Assembly (NCBI GenBank): GCA_013375405.1 | Contig: JABXJU010000177.1 | Location: 1 to 9,396, forward strand | DNA: 9,396 nucleotides | Direction: 5' to 3' | Source: Candidatus Helarchaeota archaeon | GTDB lineage: Archaea; Asgardarchaeota; Lokiarchaeia; Helarchaeales; HEL-GB-A | Shown here: one piece after another, positions 221-9,396 of the stretch | Numbering within the stretch: the stretch's first letter is position 1 | Layout of the letters: every line of letters begins with the position of its first letter | Notes under the pieces: model-generated | What the model saw: the letters and a program-made list of their open reading frames with translations, nothing else | The model's database searches: none | Told to the model about the DNA's origin: nothing | Translations under genes and position numbers: made by a program

Positions 221-724
221 TTATTGAATTCGCCCACGCGCGTTATGATTGTTCTTTAAGAAAGATTGATACTCTCCGAAGTCTTGTGTCCATTCATGCC
301 TGCTTCTCTTGCTCCAGATCTGAAAAGCTTCATCCTCGTGCTTTAAAAAATCACTTTCAGAACAGCTATTTACTAAACAAAAGTGATTGATTAAGTCTTG
401 CCATGAAAGTCCTTGATTTGATAGAAGCTGTCTCCCATCATTCGTGTGACACCAGAAACCAATGTGTTTGATCTTGTGGCAGTAGTCGCACAGGTGGTGT
501 ATGGCATCCAACTTTTGGATGTGGTTTTTATCATCATACTCCCAGAACTCATGAGCTTGAAGCTTTCCCTTTGTAGAACCACAGATATAACATTGATGGC
601 CTTCTCTCTGGTAGATCTCAAATTTAATACGATTCCACAAACGCCTTCTTTTCCTAAGCATTTGATATATTGACTTGTTCCATGCTGTTGAAGGAACTAG
701 TTCAATTGTTAAAACGAGCTCCAA
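221..724 (-). CDS. HNH endonuclease, free-standing
   Basis: The product is predicted to be a 167-aa zinc-finger HNH nuclease, a metal-dependent DNA-cutting enzyme of the kind often free-standing in viruses and mobile DNA. A CxxC knuckle at C45/C48 is followed by AHEFWEYDDKNHIQKL (H58, E59) and then LCDYCHKIKH (C79, C82, H83, H87). This is the HEvWEYDD...LCxxCHxxKH pattern of a well-populated HNH family, and the length is usual for that family. The start is a TTG. It was chosen because the N-terminal ELVLTIELVPSTAW matches the beginning of the family and the next Met, at residue 22, would remove it. No Shine-Dalgarno precedes the TTG, which suggests a leaderless or short-leader transcript. The gene stands alone at the left edge of the cargo and carries the palindrome ACGCGCGT at both its 3' end and just upstream. 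It could be a homing-type nuclease or a cargo nuclease. Family assignment is firm; role is inferred. Confidence 0.
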   Translation of the reverse strand: MELVLTIELVPSTAWNKSIYQMLRKRRRLWNRIKFEIYQREGHQCYICGSTKGKLQAHEFWEYDDKNHIQKLDAIHHLCDYCHKIKHIGFWCHTNDGRQLLSNQGLSWQDLINHFCLVNSCSESDFLKHEDEAFQIWSKRSRHEWTQDFGEYQSFLKNNHNARGRIQ

Positions 725-1429: not shown

Positions 1430-2326
1430 TTAAGGCTTTTTCAACCAGCGAGTAAGGTTATTCATTTTATGGTTCTTATTTTTTTTGGGTATTTTCCATT
1501 CTTCAAGTTTTTGTAACGCTATATCCAATTCATCCTGAAATACTAAACAATCATAAGATTCTTTTCCTTCACGTTGAGCATTGATAGTATGTCTTATTCC
1601 TTCTTTATTTTCTAACTCGTGTTGTGGAATTCTAAATACAATTATTATTTTAGCATTAGGAAATTTGTCTCTAAAGTCATCAAATTCGGAGGAATATTCT
1701 TTAGCTCTTTTTACAAGGTCTCTTCTGACTCCTGTACGGATAGGTATGCCAACAAGTACATTTTTAGGATCTGATGATGGGGGAATTGCTGCATCAAGTT
1801 CTACTGGATTTGTAACTTTATCACAATTATACCCTTTTCTCCTAAAAAATTCTTTTACCTGTTCTTCAGCTTTTTTAGCTCTATAATGTCGTTTTTCATC
1901 AGCTTCCCACATTTTATAAAAAGTATATAGAAATGTTTCTAGTGATAATTCTAGATTTTCAAATAATGATGATATTATATCAATTAATTTTTTTGCATCT
2001 CTATCTAGGTGTGGATCCCATCTTCGAGGATTTCTTAATTTATAAATATTTTTTATTCCATATAATCTTTCAAATTCCCTTATGCTTAATCCACAATTTT
2101 TTACAAAAGCAGGAACTAAAGCATCTGGATCATTTGATATTAAATTTTTTAAATCTTCTTTACTCATTTTGTTAAAATATATTTTCTGATGTAATGAGTC
2201 ATATAGTTTTTTGTTTAAACTAGTAATTACATTTATGATTCGTATAGCTAATTGATCAAGATCATCATATAAATCTGGTAATTCAGAAAAATTTGGTTTT
2301 GGAAAATCTTTAATATTTATTGTCAC
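1430..2326 (-). CDS. Predicted restriction endonuclease of the R-M pair
   Basis: This 298-aa protein is read divergently from a complete adenine methyltransferase, the classic arrangement of a type II restriction-modification pair, and is predicted to cut unmethylated DNA at the partner's site. The N-terminal 120 residues are helical and contain a DNA-binding-like SIREFERLYGI segment (about 81-91). The C-terminal half has a PD-(D/E)XK-like outline: helix RAKKAEEQVKEFFRRKGYN (149-167, E154/E155), a PVELDAAIP strand (D178 as the candidate metal ligand), then VLVGIPIRTGVRRDLVKRA (190-208). At the place where E-x-K is expected, the sequence reads G-I-P-I-R, so the active site is unusual or my alignment is off. 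The start is GTG at 2326, since a stop lies two codons upstream and the next Met (54) would discard the conserved-looking N-terminus. No Shine-Dalgarno is present. Function rests mostly on context. Confidence 0.6.
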   Translation of the reverse strand: MTINIKDFPKPNFSELPDLYDDLDQLAIRIINVITSLNKKLYDSLHQKIYFNKMSKEDLKNLISNDPDALVPAFVKNCGLSIREFERLYGIKNIYKLRNPRRWDPHLDRDAKKLIDIISSLFENLELSLETFLYTFYKMWEADEKRHYRAKKAEEQVKEFFRRKGYNCDKVTNPVELDAAIPPSSDPKNVLVGIPIRTGVRRDLVKRAKEYSSEFDDFRDKFPNAKIIIVFRIPQHELENKEGIRHTINAQREGKESYDCLVFQDELDIALQKLEEWKIPKKNKNHKMNNLTRWLKKP

Positions 2327-2449: not shown

Positions 2450-4120
2450 ATGGACGAATGGAGAAAAGAAATAGGGGCCTTTTTTACACCCCCACCCTTG
2501 GCAAGATTTCTAGTTAAATGGGCGATTACATCACAAGACGATATAGTATTAGATCCTGGTGCGGGTGATGGGATTTTTCTGATTGAATCTTTATATAGGT
2601 TTAATAAACTTGGAGTTGTTTCCGAAAAAGCGATAAATCAAATATTTGGTGTAGAGTTGGATGAAAAATCATATTTATATTCAAAAAAATTACTTTCTGA
2701 GTTTTCGGGATATGAGTGTCACAATATATTAAATATGAATTTTTTCGATCTTCGTCCACAAACATCCCGAAAATATCTTGGAATTACAATTCCATTAGTT
2801 AATGCTATCATAGGTAATCCACCATATATCAGGTATCATAGATTCAAAGGCAGAACGAGGGAAAAGGCCCAAATTGTGTCAAAGGAAATGGGTGTAACTT
2901 TCACGAATCTTGCTAGTTCTTGGGCGCCATATTTGGTCCATGCAACGAGTTTCTTGAAACAAGATGGAAAATTAGCTATGGTAGTTCCTGGAGAGTTGCT
3001 CTACGTTGATTATGCGAAAAATGTTCGAGAGTTTCTTCTTAAACATTATCATAGTGTAACTATTATTGCATTTGAGAAGAAAGTATTTCCAGAAGTATTA
3101 GAAGATACTTTATTACTTTTAGCAGATAAAAAAGAAGGAAAAAGAGGTTTAATAATAATAAGGTTGGAAGATGGAACTGAATTAGAAAAATTAAATTTAA
3201 GTAATGCAAATGAATCAATAATGGTTAATCCATTAAAATCTGGTGATAAATGGAGTAAGTATTTAATAAATGTTGAAGAATATAATATTTTGAAAAATTT
3301 TATTAAAAATGGATTTTATATTCCTTTTAGAGAATTTGCTAGTGTTGATATCGGATTTGTTACAGGAAATAATAAATTTTTTATATTATCTAAAAATGAA
3401 ATAAATGAATGGAATATAGAAAAAAAGTATCTTAAAAAAGTGATTCGAAAATCTTCCTCTTTAACGGGATTAGTTTTCTCAAAAGAAGATTGGGATTATT
3501 TATATAATAATAATGAAAAATGTTGTCTTCTTTATATTGAAAAAAATGATAATAATATAAAAAATACTAACGTTTGGAAATATCTAGAAAATGGAATTGA
3601 GTATAAAGTTAATTTAGGATACAAAACACGTAAAAGGGATCCTTGGTATTCTGTTCCATATGTAAAAATTCCTGATTGTTTCTTAACATATATGTCAAAT
3701 AATATACCAAAATTTTGTTTGAATGAAGCCAATGTTTCAAATTCTAATACAATTCATGGTGTATTTTTTAAAGATAAAAAAAACATAGATTTTATTATTC
3801 CAGCATATTATAATACATTAACATTATTAAGTATCGAATTAAGAGGACGTAGTTATGGCGGAGGTGTATTAAAATTAGAGACAAAAGAAGCAGAAAGCAT
3901 CTTAATTCCAAATATTAAAAATATAGAAATTAAAAAACAGTTAAAAATAATTTCTAACGAAATCGATTTATTATTAAGAAAAAATGAAATTAATAGAGTT
4001 ATTGAATTAATAGATGAAATTGTATTAGTAGATTATTTTAAAATAAATAATAATGATATTGATAAACTAAAAAAAGCATACTTGTCTTTAAAAAATAGAC
4101 GTCTAAAACGCATGTATTAA
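2450..4120 (+). CDS. N6-adenine DNA methyltransferase, type II R-M
   Basis: This 556-aa enzyme is predicted to transfer a methyl group from S-adenosylmethionine to the exocyclic amine of adenine at a specific DNA site, protecting DNA from the neighbouring nuclease. Motif order is that of gamma-class (M.TaqI/Eco57I-like) enzymes: motif X near the N-terminus (GAFFTPPPLARFLVKWAI, 9-26), motif I VLDPGAGDGIF (33-43), motif II acidic residue in FGVELDE (E69), a motif III-like MNFFD (D100), and catalytic motif IV IIGNPPYIRY (N123-P-P-Y126). The C-terminal half, about residues 280-556, is the expected target-recognition region, is lysine- and asparagine-rich and ends in a helical segment. All key residues are present and the length suits a solo-chain methylase. 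The recognition sequence cannot be read from the protein. It starts at ATG 2450; another ATG at 2442 is out of frame. It runs divergently from the endonuclease. Confidence 0.92.
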   Translation: MDEWRKEIGAFFTPPPLARFLVKWAITSQDDIVLDPGAGDGIFLIESLYRFNKLGVVSEKAINQIFGVELDEKSYLYSKKLLSEFSGYECHNILNMNFFDLRPQTSRKYLGITIPLVNAIIGNPPYIRYHRFKGRTREKAQIVSKEMGVTFTNLASSWAPYLVHATSFLKQDGKLAMVVPGELLYVDYAKNVREFLLKHYHSVTIIAFEKKVFPEVLEDTLLLLADKKEGKRGLIIIRLEDGTELEKLNLSNANESIMVNPLKSGDKWSKYLINVEEYNILKNFIKNGFYIPFREFASVDIGFVTGNNKFFILSKNEINEWNIEKKYLKKVIRKSSSLTGLVFSKEDWDYLYNNNEKCCLLYIEKNDNNIKNTNVWKYLENGIEYKVNLGYKTRKRDPWYSVPYVKIPDCFLTYMSNNIPKFCLNEANVSNSNTIHGVFFKDKKNIDFIIPAYYNTLTLLSIELRGRSYGGGVLKLETKEAESILIPNIKNIEIKKQLKIISNEIDLLLRKNEINRVIELIDEIVLVDYFKINNNDIDKLKKAYLSLKNRRLKRMY

Positions 4121-4186: not shown

Positions 4187-4206
4187 TAATGAGATATTTC
4201 TCATTA
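4187..4206. terminator. Hairpin between convergent genes
   Basis: TAATGAGA and TCTCATTA form a perfect 8-bp stem around a TATT loop, overlapping the stop of the minus-strand methylase stump. ATTACGTAAT, itself a 10-bp palindrome, overlaps its left arm at 4181-4190, and a further ATGAGATA copy lies at 4211-4218. It may be a bidirectional terminator for the converging transcripts or scar DNA. The stem is AT-rich and weak, and no clear T-run follows. Confidence 0.3.
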
Positions 4207-4383
4207 AATTATGAGATAAATGCTCTTACTGTTCCATGCACGAGCAAATACTCCCCTACCAAATGCTGGATCAAGTATTTTTAGATCAGGTTCATTAATA
4301 GCCCAATGGGTTATCGCTTGTGCTAACTTCATTGGTGTGTGATATTTTCTATACATCTTTTTAATAGAGTTATTTTTTACCAT
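4204..4383 (-). pseudogene. N-terminal stump of a second N6-adenine methylase
   Basis: This frame encodes only the first part of an adenine methyltransferase: KYHTPMKLAQAITHWAI (motif X region) followed by LKILDPAFGRGVF (motif I), after which the sequence drifts into ARAWNSKSIYLII and stops. Motif IV and the whole catalytic and recognition parts are missing, so the product cannot methylate. It resembles the start of the intact methylase at 2450 (TP-xx-LA...WAI...LDPaxGxGxF), showing a common family but clearly different sequence. The ATG at 4383 follows the stop of the 241-aa protein by 16 bp, so it was the last gene of the kinase operon. A TTG at 4392 in the same frame is a weaker alternative start. 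The break lies close to a hairpin and the CG tract at 4159, and the R-M pair begins just beyond, consistent with replacement or deletion during cassette exchange. Confidence 0.75.
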
Positions 4384-4399
4384 AAAAATCAACTATAAT

Positions 4400-5125
4400 T
4401 TAAGATGGTTGATTGCATAGACTATCTAATAGTGTTTGATCAGGGGGGCTGCTATCCAGATAGTTTTTACATCTTTCATAATATTTTTTTAATATAAACT
4501 CTTCACTTTCTTTTATTAATTTTCTCCATTCGCCTTTTTGTAATAATTCATAATATATAGTTGGAAAAAAGGTCGCTACAACTACCTCACAAGCTAATAT
4601 CAGGTCAATAGGTGGGGAAGGAAAGTGTGGTAATTCAACATTATGTGGAAACCAGTATAACTCATCAACATGTGGAGTTCCGTGGAACTGAAAATGATAA
4701 TATGGAGCATATTGATCTACGCTACAATTATCATAATGACAACGAGATATTACTCTATCAATCGTATAATACTCCTTTAATCTTTCCATTATCTTTTCTG
4801 AATCCCATTCAGGTCTATAGCTAAGATTTTCTTGTATTGACCAAGCTCTTAAAACAAGGCGCAAATGAGTAAGTGGATAATCTTCATTACCTGATGCTGT
4901 AATTTCACAAAAAATGTCTGGTTTAACCCTATCATCCAATTCGGCTTTTATGAATTGTAGTGGGTTATCAGGGGTAATTATTAGTTCCCAGTTCTCTTCA
5001 GAGCCTGCTCGGATACTTTGTGCAACCTCATATAATATTCTCCATGAATTCTGAGTGATTAATCCTTTTCTCTTCAGTAAATTTGCCAAGCGATTTAAAT
5101 TAGTGGACATTCTATGAGAATTCAA
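4400..5125 (-). CDS. Unknown protein, third gene of kinase operon
   Basis: I do not recognise a named domain in this 241-aa protein. It is soluble, with no signal peptide or membrane helix. Visible landmarks are a helical N-terminus (LNRLANLLKRKG, ITQNSWRILYEVAQSIR), an acidic-hydrophobic middle (PDIFCEITASGN), a histidine- and cysteine-rich patch C129-H130-x3-C134, then YYHFQFHGTPH (142-152, H144, H148, H152), and a segment ELPHFPSPPIDLILACEVV (164-182) ending in a helical C-terminus. The clustered His, Cys and aromatic residues could bind a metal or form an active site, but that is inference. The start is TTG 5125, fixed by AGGAGGT six bases upstream; the ATG at 5110 is too far from that site. 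The Shine-Dalgarno lies inside the end of the response-regulator gene, so translation is coupled and the two proteins are likely partners. It is probably an effector or accessory part of the kinase system. Confidence 0.85.
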   Translation of the reverse strand: MNSHRMSTNLNRLANLLKRKGLITQNSWRILYEVAQSIRAGSEENWELIITPDNPLQFIKAELDDRVKPDIFCEITASGNEDYPLTHLRLVLRAWSIQENLSYRPEWDSEKIMERLKEYYTIDRVISRCHYDNCSVDQYAPYYHFQFHGTPHVDELYWFPHNVELPHFPSPPIDLILACEVVVATFFPTIYYELLQKGEWRKLIKESEEFILKKYYERCKNYLDSSPPDQTLLDSLCNQPS

Positions 5126-5128
5126 TAT

Positions 5129-6202
5129 TTAACCTCCTCTGATTGAGGGTAAACGTTCGGCATCTGCTTTTGGTATTAATTCTTCTTTAATATCTTTTTC
5201 AATCACTGCTTTGTATGATACTCTTGCTTGTTCCATTGATTCTGGTCGTTCATCTGGTAAATATCCAATTGTATATTTCATTTTTACAGGTTTATTTAAT
5301 ATATAACATACAGTGTTTGCGTGCGTCTCACCGCTAGTAACACAAATGGAAGGCTCTAACTCAATATCAGTAATTTTTTGGAATGCAATCATAAAATTTT
5401 TCGATAATATTGGTTTTAAGTTAGCATCTTGAATAAATTTAAAACCTATTTGTTGGAGTCTTCCTTTCCACCATCTTTTTTCCATTTCAGAAAAAACTCT
5501 ATCATACAAGGCATCTTCGAAATATAATTGCACTCCCTTACGTAGAAATGAAGATTCGCTAATCCCAAGAGCTGAAGCAGCATAGAGAGAGTTATAAAAA
5601 ATTCCTGGATATTTAAATAGTACCTGCAATATCCATTTTGCTACACTATGAATCCTCAATAATCCATTAGCCATGGGTTTTGGAGGGGATGAAAGTTGTA
5701 GATTTTCTTCTTCATATTTATTTGCACCCATTAATTCTACTAAAGATTTCCAGTTTCTTTTCTTTATATCTATTGACTTGATTTTATTAAATCCATTAAC
5801 TATAGTTATTAGAAATTTTTTTGCATATTCAACATCCTCATTTACATCATCCTTATAAAGTATATCATCAACAACTTGCACTTGTTCCAAATAATTTGGG
5901 TTTTGATTTAAGATATATCTTGTAGAAAATAATATTAAAGGAATTTCAGGGTTTTGTTCCGATATGTATGTTGCAATAGTGCCTCCTTTATAACTCACAT
6001 ATTCTCCTGTTTTTTGACGTTGAGTAAGAAGATAATCTATTAAGAAAAGATCTGGAGTTGAAGTTAATGATATATCCTCAATATGTTGAGGAGGAGGTAC
6101 GGACCTTACGTGAATCTTTCTTTCTTCAGACAATATTCGCGGAAATCTTTCGGAATCTCGTGGGTCTTCATCTATCAATAGGATATCTATTTCTCTATCC
6201 AT
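5129..6202 (-). CDS. Response-regulator-like protein with unknown output domain
   Basis: This 357-aa protein begins with a receiver domain (about 1-137). The acidic pocket is D11/E12/D13 in DILLIDED, the phospho-acceptor is D56 in DLFLIDYLL, the switch residue is S93 or T94 in LILFST, and the conserved Lys is K117 in ILYKDD. It should accept phosphate from the kinase encoded just upstream. An unusual loop between D56 and the Ser/Thr (about 61-75) lengthens the domain. The C-terminal 200 residues are not a known DNA-binding or enzyme domain. They hold KRWWKGRLQQIG (242-253), C287-x-TSGETHANTVC (to C299), KPVKMKYTIGYLPDERP (304-320) and EQARVSYKAV (324-333), which look like conserved motifs of an output or effector module. 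GAGGTGA, overlapping the kinase stop codon, is the ribosome binding site, with 4 bp between the genes. Receiver call is firm; output is unknown. Confidence 0.85.
   Translation of the reverse strand: MDREIDILLIDEDPRDSERFPRILSEERKIHVRSVPPPQHIEDISLTSTPDLFLIDYLLTQRQKTGEYVSYKGGTIATYISEQNPEIPLILFSTRYILNQNPNYLEQVQVVDDILYKDDVNEDVEYAKKFLITIVNGFNKIKSIDIKKRNWKSLVELMGANKYEEENLQLSSPPKPMANGLLRIHSVAKWILQVLFKYPGIFYNSLYAASALGISESSFLRKGVQLYFEDALYDRVFSEMEKRWWKGRLQQIGFKFIQDANLKPILSKNFMIAFQKITDIELEPSICVTSGETHANTVCYILNKPVKMKYTIGYLPDERPESMEQARVSYKAVIEKDIKEELIPKADAERLPSIRGG
5132..5138 (-). promoter_or_regulatory. Shine-Dalgarno fixing the TTG start at 5125
   Basis: AGGAGGT on the minus strand, inside the last codons of the response-regulator gene and six bases before TTG. 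It decides for the TTG over the downstream ATG and couples translation of the two genes. Confidence 0.7.
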
Positions 6203-6206
6203 TTTT

Positions 6207-8435
6207 TCACCTCGGTAGTTCTATTCTAAGACACGTGCTCCATCCTTCTGGCGGATTAGTAAAATTAATTTTGCCTTCATAAGACACCACAATATTTCGT
6301 ACTATTGTTAGACCTAAACCCGTTCCAAAACCAAAATCTAAATCTGGGTCGCTATATGATACAAATGGTTCGAAAACTTCCTCCCATCGTTCAGGCTCAA
6401 GTCCACAGCCAGTATCTAATAATTCTATAACTAATTTCTTATTTACATATTGAGATTTTACCAATATCTTTCTCTCTTCTACTTCGCTTAAAGCTTTTAT
6501 TGAATTTGTCATTAAATTCACCAATATTGAATGTAATTCAGATTCGTACATTGGTGGCGTACGAACATCAGCAGGTACATTATTAATAGGTTCAATACCA
6601 CTATCATCTAAATAACTTTGAAATGGAGCAAACATTTTATCAACCGCAAGTCGTAAAGAAAGATCTCTTTTTTTCTCACGAGCATCTCTTCCTAGCATAA
6701 GGCCAATCATACTAGCTAGTCTTTTAATGCTAAATCCCCAAGCCTTAATGTCTGATAAAATTATTCTATAATCATTTTTTTGACTTGAAGGAAGGGAGCC
6801 TAGAAATTGTTGAAGATCTGAAGCAATTTCCATTAAACGTCGATGAATCACACTCAACTCATGATTAAAAACAGTAATCATTGTACCAGTTGAGGCTAAC
6901 ACACGTAGCATCGATATGTGGGTGATTGATTCTTCTTGTTGTTTTATCACATCTTCCTTTGCCAAATGTATGTATTGTTGAATGACGTTAGTCGTTTCTT
7001 CTCCTAGAATATCTCTTTGTTTATCTACAATTTTTTCAATGGTAGTTAAAGTTGTAATTGGGTCCGTCTTTTTTTCTGATTCTTGCTCTTTTTTTATTTG
7101 TGCTTTATGAGCAGCGTATTTGATTGTCATCCAATCTATTCCAGTCCTTACAAATTGTTGGAGCTCATCAAAAGCTCGATTTTCGAGAAGTCGATCTCTA
7201 GTTACTGTGACTGATATTTTTGGGTTGAATTTTCGGGATAAAAATACCGCTCCAAATAATTGACTATTACTAGGAAGTGAAAGCATTGGTCTCTCTAGAC
7301 CTTCTGCTTCCTTTCTCAAAATCGAAGGAGTACTAGAACGTCGCCTACTCCTATCATATCCTAATTTTAGCCAATCGTTTCCAGGTTCCCCATATTGAAA
7401 TACTCTAAATCCATCCAGAAAGACCTTAACTCCTCCATATTCACTAGCTAATTTTCTAAGATCTCTTAAAGTAATTCCTGGAACCTCTGCAAATAATCTC
7501 TCCAAAGAAAACATATAAAGGGAAAACGATGCTGGACCTAAAATACGAATTTTTATCGGTGGTTGGTGATCATATTCTCGTCCAGTTGAAGTAATTATTA
7601 CTTTATACATAATTTTACCATTTTCATCAATATAACCTTCTAGCTTGCCCCATGATGTTTTTAAAATGGAATCAGATAATAACCCCTCAATTTCTGGATG
7701 CTCAGGAGATATTATATTAATTTTAATGCCAGGATCGTCTCCTTCTAAGCCCTTTATAATATATTCCTCAATTTCCCACGGAAATGGATTGACTAAGCCA
7801 AGAATCTCTTTTTTAAAGGAATTTAGAACATCCTCAGACCAAGGGTTTCTTGTATCCTGCAACACAAGTTTGGTTCCAGTTTTTTCTGTAACTGACACTT
7901 TTTCAACACTTACTTCGACTGAAAAATCGTTTACTAAACTACCGGATTTTATTTTGCCCCATTCAAAAATTGCACGAATACGTTCTTTTTCTTCTTTTTC
8001 ATTTATAATAGCAGTTGAAGTAAGAATTAGTATTTTAGAAATTAATCTACATGCAAATCTACCAATCCCTTTACTTCCTGTACGAGTTCTCTTATATTTA
8101 TTCGATATTGGATTTTTTTCTTTTTCATCGGTTCCTATTCTCATCCACTTAGTTTTTATATCCTTAAGTGTCATTCCCTCGCCAGTATCCTCTACAATAA
8201 TCGTACCGCCTTCCTTAGATACATCAATAAAAGTTATCGTAACGGAAGTTGCATCCGCATCATATGAATTTTTCACCAATTCTGCAAGAGCTATTGAAGG
8301 TTTAGCAACGAGTCGTTCTCCTAATTCAAGGAGAAGGTGGCTATCTACTTCGAAATGAAGCGTTTCCTTTTGGCTATTGTCATTTTGTGCCATGGGGACA
8401 TCCACTTTACTAAGTTCACTAATAAGATTAAGCAT
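6207..8435 (-). CDS. Cytosolic histidine kinase with two GHKL ATPase domains
   Basis: This 742-aa protein joins an N-terminal Hsp90/MutL/MORC-like ATPase to a C-terminal histidine kinase. In the first domain, ELVKNSYDADAT holds N56, VEDTGEGM holds D83/G85/G87, and RTGSKGIGRFA (119-128) is the lid motif. The connecting region contains GGVKVFLDGFRVFQYGEPGNDW (334-355) and SVTVTRDRLLENRAFDELQQF, typical of this ATPase type. A Lys/Glu-rich helical linker (about 440-510) leads to an H-box with FNHELSVI (H525, E526), then N box (N640/N644), G1 LLDTGCGL (D674), F box VFEPF and G2 GFGTGLGL (702-709). Both nucleotide sites appear intact. There are no membrane helices, PAS or GAF domains, so the signal must be cytosolic, plausibly sensed by the ATPase clamp. 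It should phosphorylate D56 of the next gene's product. A TATA box lies 31 bp before the ATG; M15 is an alternative start. GHKL ATPases of this kind are known in R-M neighbourhoods (Iyer, Abhiman and Aravind described MORC/MutL relatives); the defence role here is inferred. Confidence 0.92.
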   Translation of the reverse strand: MLNLISELSKVDVPMAQNDNSQKETLHFEVDSHLLLELGERLVAKPSIALAELVKNSYDADATSVTITFIDVSKEGGTIIVEDTGEGMTLKDIKTKWMRIGTDEKEKNPISNKYKRTRTGSKGIGRFACRLISKILILTSTAIINEKEEKERIRAIFEWGKIKSGSLVNDFSVEVSVEKVSVTEKTGTKLVLQDTRNPWSEDVLNSFKKEILGLVNPFPWEIEEYIIKGLEGDDPGIKINIISPEHPEIEGLLSDSILKTSWGKLEGYIDENGKIMYKVIITSTGREYDHQPPIKIRILGPASFSLYMFSLERLFAEVPGITLRDLRKLASEYGGVKVFLDGFRVFQYGEPGNDWLKLGYDRSRRRSSTPSILRKEAEGLERPMLSLPSNSQLFGAVFLSRKFNPKISVTVTRDRLLENRAFDELQQFVRTGIDWMTIKYAAHKAQIKKEQESEKKTDPITTLTTIEKIVDKQRDILGEETTNVIQQYIHLAKEDVIKQQEESITHISMLRVLASTGTMITVFNHELSVIHRRLMEIASDLQQFLGSLPSSQKNDYRIILSDIKAWGFSIKRLASMIGLMLGRDAREKKRDLSLRLAVDKMFAPFQSYLDDSGIEPINNVPADVRTPPMYESELHSILVNLMTNSIKALSEVEERKILVKSQYVNKKLVIELLDTGCGLEPERWEEVFEPFVSYSDPDLDFGFGTGLGLTIVRNIVVSYEGKINFTNPPEGWSTCLRIELPR

Positions 8436-8555: not shown

Positions 8556-8750
8556 TTAGTCTTTACGAGCTAATGGCCTGGGAGAAATCGTTTTTTCCTC
8601 TATTTTTGGTCTGAAATATTCTCTAACAATTACGTCGAGCATGTTCGATCGTGATCTATGTTCTTTATCGGCTAATTCATCGATCATCTTTAGAACGTCT
8701 GGATATACCCCGATGGAGATCTTCTCTTGTTTTAATTTCTTCTCCGACAT
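8556..8750 (-). CDS. Ribbon-helix-helix (CopG/Arc-like) regulator
   Basis: This 64-aa protein has the ribbon-helix-helix plan: a basic leader, the DNA-contacting beta strand KISIGVYP (about 9-16), helix A VLKMIDELADKEH, the SRSNML turn and helix B VIVREYFRP. Such proteins form dimers that bind operators through the paired strands. The length is usual for the family, and the short C-terminal tail EEKTISPRPLARKD is basic. It starts at ATG 8750 with no Shine-Dalgarno. It reads in the same direction as the kinase operon 120 bp downstream, so it may control itself, that operon or the facing virus genes. A 6-3-6 inverted repeat 12 bp ahead of its start is a natural operator candidate. It could instead be the antitoxin half of a toxin-antitoxin pair, but no toxin ORF is beside it. 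Confidence 0.85.
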   Translation of the reverse strand: MSEKKLKQEKISIGVYPDVLKMIDELADKEHRSRSNMLDVIVREYFRPKIEEKTISPRPLARKD

Positions 8751-8895: not shown

Positions 8896-9000
8896 ATGGG
8901 TCGAGAACGTCCAAGCGAGCGAGATCCCTGGAAATGTTTCAGGGAGCAGCCGGGCGTCAAGATCCTCGACATCGCAAGGCGCAGATCGAGGGAGCGTTGA
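8896..9000 (+). CDS. Short ORF coupled to the portal gene
   Basis: A 34-codon frame starts at ATG 8896, preceded by TAAGG five bases upstream, and ends in a TGA that overlaps the portal ATG (ATGA). Its sequence is charged: MGRERPSERDPWKCFREQPG then a helical, basic KILDIARRRSRER. The overlap with the portal start marks it as the true frame ahead of that gene. The frame is open further upstream to 8863, so this may be only the C-terminal end of a longer virus gene whose front was cut off by the cargo; in many tailed viruses the terminase large subunit precedes the portal, but the fragment is too short to identify. The frame is well supported; the start and the product are not. Confidence 0.45.
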   Translation: MGRERPSERDPWKCFREQPGVKILDIARRRSRER

Positions 9001-9396
9001 TGTCGAAACGGCCTTGGCCTGGCCTGTTCCACGTGATACGGCGATTCTTCTACGGGAAGGCCAGCCTTCCCAAGGCCAAAAGATACGGTGAGACGACGAC
9101 ACCGACGACCAGCACCTACTACGAGGGTATGGATAAGGATTACCGTTGGTTCCGCCAGGATGAGCTCGTCCGCAAATGCATCGTGACCAACGCCTACATC
9201 GCCACCATGACAGCTGGCTTCAAGACAGTCCTTGAGTCCACAAGCGAAGACGTCAACGTTGACGACTTCAAATTCGTCAAGGAGGACGTCGACGAGCTCA
9301 ACAAGCGCGCGAATATGGATCTGGTCCTCTTTGTGGCCCAGATCAAGCGCAGCATATATGGTAAGACCGGGTTCGAGATCGTCCTCGAGGAGGATG
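9000..9396 (+). CDS. Virus portal protein, N-terminal part
   Basis: The gene starts at ATG 9000 and remains open at the right edge, giving 132 residues. Portal proteins form the dodecameric ring at the head vertex through which the packaging motor moves DNA. The sequence fits the N-terminus of phage-type portals: a basic leader (MSKRPWPGLFHVIRRFFYGK), a low-complexity TTTPTTST stretch, then DYRWFRQDELVRKCIVTNAY (the 'inactive region before wing' seen in portals), TAGFKTVLES, a charged helical stretch with DVDELNKRANMDL, and IKRSIYGKTGFEIVLEED, resembling the conserved Y-G-x-x-x-x-E segment. GAGGGAG five bases before the ATG is the ribosome binding site. Codon usage and GC content are far from the AT-rich cargo genes. 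The resemblance is to archaeal tailed viruses as far as I can judge from memory; a different structural protein is less likely. Confidence 0.65.
   Translation, partial: MSKRPWPGLFHVIRRFFYGKASLPKAKRYGETTTPTTSTYYEGMDKDYRWFRQDELVRKCIVTNAYIATMTAGFKTVLESTSEDVNVDDFKFVKEDVDELNKRANMDLVLFVAQIKRSIYGKTGFEIVLEED

What the first reader, a model, noticed from the sequence alone, without database searches (positions are those of the whole stretch)
4204..8435. Kinase, receiver and unknown-protein operon that once ended in an adenine methylase
Seen: four co-directional genes with 4-bp, 4-bp and 16-bp spacing and internal Shine-Dalgarnos, encoding a double-GHKL cytosolic histidine kinase, a receiver with intact phosphorylation residues plus unknown output domain, an unknown His/Cys-rich protein and a methylase stump. 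Known: GHKL ATPases of the MutL/MORC type occur in R-M neighbourhoods, and Detocs shows that two-component logic can serve anti-phage defence. Inferred: a phosphorelay defence system in which the ATPase half senses foreign or unmodified DNA and the receiver fires an effector. The architecture does not match Detocs as I know it (no TPR sensor, no separate phosphotransfer protein).
Basis: partly seen in the sequence, partly recalled or inferred. Interest (0 to 1): 0.75.

Follow-up and report, generated by a model that had tools for sequence, protein, structure and literature searches.

The report
Kinase-gated DNA-methylation operon, probably antiviral
Four neighbouring genes form a rare but widely scattered microbial module that couples a DNA-type sensor kinase and its switch protein to a DNA methylase and a protein distantly related to a virus-defence component, so it may be a phosphate-switched form of restriction-modification.

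Summary
The window carries a double-GHKL histidine kinase, a receiver protein, an unknown 241-aa protein and a methylase stump, in one operon. It is no local accident: in 10 genome loci found through the receiver, the kinase precedes it in 9, the third gene follows in 9, a methylase related to the window's Eco57I-type one follows in 8. Of 74 non-redundant kinase relatives in IMG/VR, 60 have a methylase within four genes and 10 have the third protein.

New here: the third protein looks like a remote DUF2290 relative (profile probability 93%; ordinary HMM scans mostly miss it), DUF2290 being a helicase's partner in a published anti-T7 system. And the methylase is probably not lost: an intact related one lies convergently 83 bp away, a layout seen in 4 of 11 IMG/VR loci with the third protein.

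Closest known: HEF_HK/Response_reg_2 pairs linked to cytosine restriction-modification (PMC8011034). This is a distinct variant: other receiver output, other third gene, adenine-type methylase, archaea included. Best reading: phosphorelay-gated restriction of unmodified DNA. Gating and defence are inferred, not shown.

The parts
6207..8435 (-). Soluble histidine kinase, 742 aa: N-terminal MutL/MORC-like GHKL ATPase (47-147), H-box with H525, C-terminal HATPase_c (631-741)
5129..6202 (-). Response regulator, 357 aa: receiver 1-145 with D11/E12, D56, S93, K117; conserved output domain about 180-357 with no recognised family
4400..5125 (-). Third protein, 241 aa, DUF2290-like: R128-x-H130-x-D132 ... 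P141-x-x-H144 motif; candidate effector
4204..4392 (-). 62-aa stump of an N6-adenine-type methylase (motif I region only), apparent relic of the fourth gene
2450..4120 (+). Intact Eco57I-type N6-adenine methylase, 556 aa, convergent with the operon; same best PADLOC model as 5 of 8 fourth genes of relatives; probably the methylase of this system

Best explanation
A phosphorelay-gated restriction-modification-like antiviral module. The methylase marks host DNA. The MutL-like ATPase half of the kinase closes on DNA (or a DNA-protein complex) that signals an invader, most simply DNA without the mark; this lets the rear half phosphorylate H525. The phosphate passes to D56 of the receiver, whose output domain then switches on the DUF2290-like protein, which damages or blocks unmarked DNA. 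Shown: gene order, conservation of the phosphorylation and ATP-binding residues, methylase linkage; supported: the remote DUF2290 relation. Inferred: defence, what is sensed, phosphotransfer, that gene 3 is the effector and its activity.
For: Operon conserved over very distant hosts, including a Methanoperedens genome and a Parvarchaeota bin (the latter on a 726,884-base contig). The residues checked in both GHKL sites and H525 are invariant in 11 of 11 kinases; H525 in 78 of 78 IMG/VR relatives. NPP[YF] methylase motif in 8 of 8 fourth genes. Methylase within four ORFs in 60 of 74 non-redundant IMG/VR kinase clusters, and annotated within about 5 kb in 10 of the 13 plasmid loci opened, an eleventh (L046) recognised by profile. 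The methylase is the most diverged part (median identity between loci 18%, against 37% kinase, 32% receiver, 25% third protein), as expected if target specificity is exchanged. Third protein against DUF2290: hhalign probability 92.8, score 52.7 against at most 22.2 in 100 column shuffles; 64.9 and 38.7 against 22.8 in 200 with the smaller set. DUF2290 with a helicase specifically inhibits T7 (PMC9122126, passages).
Against: No experiment. No defence island around the 10 genome loci. Gene 3 has no solved-fold match and no recognised nuclease family. The DUF2290 relation rests on profile-profile comparison: 17 of 18 members miss the Pfam and PADLOC models, none of five further relatives hits PF10053 at E <= 10, and none of 11 IMG/VR third proteins hits my DUF2290 HMM at E < 1; only L044 (E 0.0027) and L011 (E 0.016) do. 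A transcriptional output of the receiver is not excluded. Only 13 of 116 plasmid records were opened, through an incomplete gene table. The window copy carries a stump, and L003 keeps only the receiver.
Confidence: 0.48

Rival explanations
1. An ordinary-style two-component regulator that controls expression of the linked methylase (and thereby the methylome), not a direct defence effector chain; the third protein is a co-regulator.
For: The authors of the related HEF_HK study speculate that such pairs control R-M systems (PMC8011034 Discussion). Kinase and receiver are intact and the receiver profile hits ordinary receivers.
Against: No DNA-binding family was found in the output domain, though the structure search was filled by the receiver half and barely tested it. 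A DUF2290-like gene 3 fits an effector better. The genes lie in one operon, so a regulator would mostly control itself.
Confidence: 0.25
2. A standard type II R-M whose nuclease is the third protein, with the kinase/receiver as a maintenance or post-segregational control device of a mobile element.
For: Kinase relatives on plasmids and IMG/VR contigs; methylase plus small companion gene is R-M-like.
Against: Third protein not recognised as a nuclease by Pfam, PADLOC or PDB folds; a kinase-receiver chain is unusual for plain R-M (general knowledge).
Confidence: 0.15
3. The window copy is a decaying remnant: methylase lost, and a separate R-M pair (1430-2326 and 2450-4120) happens to lie beside it. 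(Not exclusive of the other readings, which concern the intact module.)
For: Stump of 62 aa; an uncharacterised gene 1430-2326 lies divergently beside the intact methylase; stump and intact methylase share only 14 of 43 aligned residues. The intact methylase was compared with system methylases only, and its best PADLOC model is a general type II one, so its kinship is not exclusive.
Against: The other three genes are intact with the key residues. The intact methylase aligns full length at 25-30% to those of L001, L002, L054, L056, L058, L059, L065, L067, L082 and over 487 residues to L008 (others lower or partial), with the same best PADLOC model as 5 of 8 fourth genes. Four IMG/VR loci have kinase, receiver, third gene and a convergent methylase (L054, L056, L059, L082).
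Confidence: 0.3

Closest known systems
HEF_HK (PF19191) / Response_reg_2 (PF19192) two-component-like pairs next to R-M genes (Bellieny-Rabelo et al. 2021, PMC8011034; abstract, Introduction, Results and Discussion read)
   Same: Soluble kinase with HATPase_c_3 in front and HATPase_c behind, adjacent receiver gene, DNA methylase neighbourhood. The profile of our kinases finds the kinases of two such loci at E 4e-36 and 5e-49.
   Different: No PF19191 or PF19192 match; the receiver profile does not hit the two regulators of those loci; adenine-type instead of mainly cytosine methylase; a DUF2290-like third gene; archaeal members. The paper describes bacteria.
Helicase + DUF2290 anti-T7 system (Rousset et al. 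2022, PMC9122126, passages)
   Same: A DUF2290-type protein as the small partner gene (remote).
   Different: Here the partners are kinase, receiver and methylase. All 9 DUF2290 plasmid loci opened have, just upstream, a gene annotated 'ATP-binding domain-containing protein'; that it is the helicase is from the paper and by eye, not searched.
Detocs (glossary passage in PMC11249213; gene details recalled)
   Same: Two-component logic serving defence.
   Different: A 3-gene system whose best-described effector is an ATP-cleaving PNP, and absent from archaeal genomes according to that paper. No methylase in Detocs as recalled.
MORC/paraMORC GHKL ATPases of R-M operons (Iyer et al. 2008, PMC2292703, passages)
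   Same: N-terminal GHKL ATPase in methylase neighbourhoods.
   Different: 'Receiver' and 'two-component' do not occur in that paper's text; here the ATPase is fused to a complete kinase core.

Membership tests
HEF_HK / Response_reg_2 pair | HEF_HK domain (PF19191) in the kinase | tested here: not met
   Not among the Pfam matches of the window kinase at E <= 1; the intermediate L011 kinase has a sub-threshold match, E 0.0079
HEF_HK / Response_reg_2 pair | Response_reg_2 domain (PF19192) in the regulator | tested here: not met
   0 of 14 receivers at E <= 10; 0 of 10 genomes (where the control genomes did not ring either); the same search does find 2 of 297 others
HEF_HK / Response_reg_2 pair | HATPase_c_3 + DHp + HATPase_c architecture, adjacent receiver gene | tested here: met
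HEF_HK / Response_reg_2 pair | C5 cytosine methylase neighbour (predominant in the paper) | tested here: not met
   Window methylase is N6/Eco57I, L007 and L011 have Eco57I matches, all 8 fourth genes match type II MTase models and carry NPP[YF]
Helicase + DUF2290 | DUF2290 protein | tested here: inconclusive
   hhalign 92.8; but PADLOC DUF2290 E 7e-4 and Pfam E 0.038 in only 1 of 18 members, none of five further relatives in Pfam, none of 11 IMG/VR ones with my HMM at E < 1
Helicase + DUF2290 | Helicase gene next door | tested here: not met
   No helicase domain among the 10 window proteins scanned
Type II restriction-modification | DNA methylase | tested here: met
   Intact 2450-4120 in the window, fourth gene in 8 of 10 relatives
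Type II restriction-modification | Cognate restriction endonuclease | tested here: inconclusive
   Third protein and 1430-2326 match no nuclease family; fold search of the third protein empty
Two-component system | Phospho-acceptor His and Asp with their motifs | tested here: met
   H525 11/11, D56 24/24, K117 23/24; HELR alignment
Two-component system | Phosphotransfer from kinase to regulator | not testable with these tools
   needs purified proteins
Detocs | PNP-type ATP-cleaving effector | tested here: not met
   No PNP match in the window proteins scanned; other Detocs effectors not tested
paraMORC | GHKL domain followed by an S5 domain | not tested
   GHKL part is met; S5 was not examined

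The most novel reading that the evidence does not exclude
A modular class of phosphorelay-gated DNA-discrimination immunity: one kind of MutL-like ATPase/histidine kinase plus receiver, tied to exchangeable methylases and exchangeable third proteins (DUF2290-like here, MBL-fold hydrolase or GIY-YIG nuclease in relatives), carried by archaea, bacteria, plasmids and (pro)viral contigs. The methylation state of DNA would be read by an ATPase clamp and transmitted by phosphate to an effector, instead of by the nuclease reading it directly.
Probability: 0.35. Interest if true: 0.88.

Novelty: new variant of a known kind. Interest (0 to 1): 0.66.

Why it matters
If the chain works as proposed, it would be a restriction-modification system in which recognition and attack are separated by a phosphorelay, which allows delay, threshold and reset. 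It would give the HEF_HK pairs, whose role is open, and the DUF2290 proteins a common functional frame, and it makes a clear test possible: substitute H525 or D56 in an intact relative and measure phage protection. It would also give MORC-type ATPases a sensing role.

Tried and rejected
Receiver as query in IMG/VR: single sequence and alignment found no relative; the kinase alignment did. The HNH protein found nothing there. The phage collection had two partial kinase hits and no match to the window DNA, to the right-end ORF or to DUF2290. The right-end ORF 8934-9395 looked portal-like to me by eye, but no search supported it, so I do not claim it.

L011's third protein against profile A3: hhalign probability only 23, local match. 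L046 and L051 third genes, and the regulators of L047, L051 and L053, hit none of my profiles.

Defence islands: 69 flanking proteins of 150 aa or more from the genome loci (the ORFs of that size outside the core genes, except one overlapping 162-aa ORF in L002; L005 has none). PADLOC matched 41 families at E <= 1e-5, 25 shown, 23 of these in one member each, many being variants of one family (RmrA); Pfam matched 75, 25 shown, mostly ordinary domains with a few transposase-type ones. No enrichment claimed, and no control set was run.

Whether the stump is nearer to other operons' fourth genes than the intact window methylase is: undecided over 43 residues. A phase-variable inversion of the methylase was considered; no long, good inverted repeat joins stump and methylase start.

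PF10053 weak hits in large ORFs (L026, L028, L029) were dropped as chance; I looked at the ORFs of L026 and L028, not L029. Profile A4 in 297 genomes gave 102 with a match, but only one was full length, and that was L001's own genome; the rest look like ordinary receivers.

Print check: searches in the held library (PubMed Central, open licences; no bioRxiv set). Among the listed titles and abstracts no paper on this four-gene set appeared; several lists were capped (20 of 115, 20 of 60, 6 of 17,723).

Full report

The genes belong together. Word-based protein searches list 15 receivers and 11 unknown-type proteins in 5.8 billion sequences, the window's own copy counted in each; a profile search for the third protein lists 15. 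Four of the longest-contig lengths (6292, 4295, 5980, 3304) occur in both lists, which suggests shared contigs. One scan of 84,980 species genomes with two peptide patterns from the receiver alignment gave 10 loci, named Desulfomonilaceae, Bacillota, Desulfobacterales, Acidobacteria, Proteobacteria, Methanoperedens, an unnamed bacterium, WOR-3, Parvarchaeota and Phycisphaerae; nearly all are metagenome bins. The kinase lies directly upstream in 9 of 10, the third gene downstream in 9 of 10 (in L001 only by tblastn, no full ORF called), and a methylase related to the window's next in 8 of 10. The two misses for the methylase are L004, whose contig ends there, and L003, a lone receiver. H525 and the checked residues of both ATP sites are invariant in 11 kinases (window, nine loci, L011); the residue after H525 is not (E 5, Q 5, T 1). 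D56 is invariant in 24 receivers; position 11 is acidic in 24 of 24 and position 12 in 23; S/T at 93 in 22; K117 in 23. NPP[YF] is present in all 8 fourth genes (all).

A wider family. The window kinase finds 116 of 72,556 plasmid records by tblastn, 43 of them Campylobacter. I opened 12 of these in addition to the Paraburkholderia plasmid L011, which the receiver search had found and which is also one of the 116. A methylase is annotated within about 5 kb in 10 of these 13; L046 has one recognisable by profile; L049 and L053 have none annotated and none of the N6 type by profile. L052 appears split. Third genes are related to ours in L042 (E 8e-15), L044 (E 2e-6) and weakly L011 (E 4e-3), not in L046 or L051; L045, L047 and L053 have an MBL-fold hydrolase and L044 also a GIY-YIG nuclease by annotation. 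In IMG/VR, 88 loci encode kinase relatives, 80 were kept, and 78 have a kinase ORF of 600 aa or more. In 75 of 78 a co-directional ORF starts within 100 bp of the kinase end or overlaps it; 29 of 78 of these next ORFs hit one of my receiver profiles, so many are more diverged or different. After collapsing at 90% identity, 60 of 74 clusters have a methylase within four ORFs (27 N6, 34 C5, some both), 3 an MBL hydrolase, and 10 the DUF2290-like gene; all 10 of those have both a methylase and a receiver of our family. H525 is kept in 78 of 78, D674 in 72 of 78. The scan patterns included the N-box of the front ATPase, so its invariance there is by selection; that of H525 is not. IMG/VR contigs are predicted viruses and proviruses; I did not check each boundary. 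ORFs were called mechanically.

The third protein. It matches no Pfam or PADLOC family itself. One of 18 relatives touches DUF2290 (Pfam E 0.038, PADLOC E 7e-4). A profile of the 18 against 10 DUF2290 proteins that I collected gives hhalign probability 64.9 over 166 columns, score 38.7, the best of 200 column shuffles being 22.8. With six more relatives, found by profile A3 or by place in the operon and not by DUF2290, it rises to 92.8, score 52.7, best of 100 shuffles 22.2. Against this: none of five of those relatives matches PF10053 at E <= 10, and none of 11 IMG/VR third proteins hits my DUF2290 HMM at E < 1; L044 (E 0.0027) and L011 (E 0.016) do. By eye the shared signature is R-x-[HD]-x-D, then P-x-x-H, then R-x-P. 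All 9 DUF2290 plasmid loci I opened have an ATP-binding-protein gene immediately upstream, which fits the published helicase + DUF2290 system that specifically inhibits T7 (PMC9122126, passages). The AlphaFold model is confident (pLDDT 90.8 for the best of five) yet has no convincing match in the PDB. Its activity is unknown.

The methylase question. The stump aligns to the first part of the fourth genes. But the intact plus-strand methylase at 2450-4120 aligns over all or most of its length to the methylases of L001, L002, L008 and seven of the IMG/VR loci at 25 to 30%; to L007 and L010 at 24 and 22%, to the rest only in part. Its best PADLOC model, PDLC03267, is also the best for 5 of the 8 fourth genes (L001, L002, L007, L008, L010; the other three fall in PDLC03227). 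In 4 of the 11 IMG/VR loci with the third protein (L054, L056, L059, L082) the order is kinase, receiver, third gene, then a convergent methylase of 561-563 aa, which is the layout of the window apart from the stump; in most of the others the methylase lies upstream of the kinase. So the function is probably retained. I compared the window methylase with system methylases only, so the alternative, that 2450-4120 with 1430-2326 is an unrelated R-M pair, stays open.

What is known. Bellieny-Rabelo and colleagues (PMC8011034) described HEF_HK kinases and Response_reg_2 regulators, 91.6% linked in 644 regions of bacteria, near type II R-M with C5 methylases conspicuous, and speculated about control of R-M. 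Our set lacks both Pfam domains, but its kinase profile finds two of their kind, so the kinases are relatives. Iyer et al. 2008 (PMC2292703, passages) described MORC-like ATPases in R-M operons without a two-component part. Detocs is a different three-gene system (glossary passage of PMC11249213; its genes recalled). I found no report of the present set among the papers listed by searches.

Judgement. That this is a real, conserved, patchily spread module of kinase, receiver, third protein and methylase is well supported. That the third protein is DUF2290-like is likely. That the module is antiviral is plausible by association; that a phosphorelay gates attack on unmodified DNA is the most coherent mechanism but is inference throughout. 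I file it as a new variant beside the HEF_HK pairs.

Noticed in passing
window 1430-2326 (-): 298-aa protein without any family above cut-off, divergent from the intact methylase; could be a restriction enzyme of an R-M pair or another partner of the module.
   Followed up: partly
window 221-724 (-): HNH endonuclease of a phage family (phrog_5200, E 8e-25); no relative in IMG/VR by pattern.
   Followed up: partly
window 8556-8750 (-): 64-aa ribbon-helix-helix, Arc-like repressor (phrog_3431, E 3e-6) 120 bp upstream of the kinase operon; possible operon regulator.
   Followed up: no
window 8934-9395 (+): Open frame of 154 aa in DNA of higher GC (about 52%) with no relatives found; the operon sits in an AT-rich stretch between two GC-richer ends.
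   Followed up: partly
L045:7811-8818, L047:7761-8798, L053:9031-9777; IMG/VR L071, L073, L075: A sister layout: N6-type methylase, double-GHKL kinase, about 227-aa regulator, MBL-fold hydrolase (no methylase annotated in L053, where an IS982 transposase splits the hydrolase). May be a second unnamed system.
   Followed up: partly
L044:8389-10038 (Rhizobium plasmid): Kinase operon continues with a DUF2290-like gene and a gene annotated as GIY-YIG nuclease; a bridge between the third protein and a recognised nuclease.
   Followed up: partly
L003:9920-10972: Receiver of the family standing alone, with no kinase, third gene or methylase found on the locus by tblastn; looks like a relic.
   Followed up: yes
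L005, L006, L009 kinases: These three kinases carry long coiled-coil-like insertions between the two ATPase halves (by eye) and use another methylase model (PDLC03227) than the other five: a subtype.
   Followed up: partly
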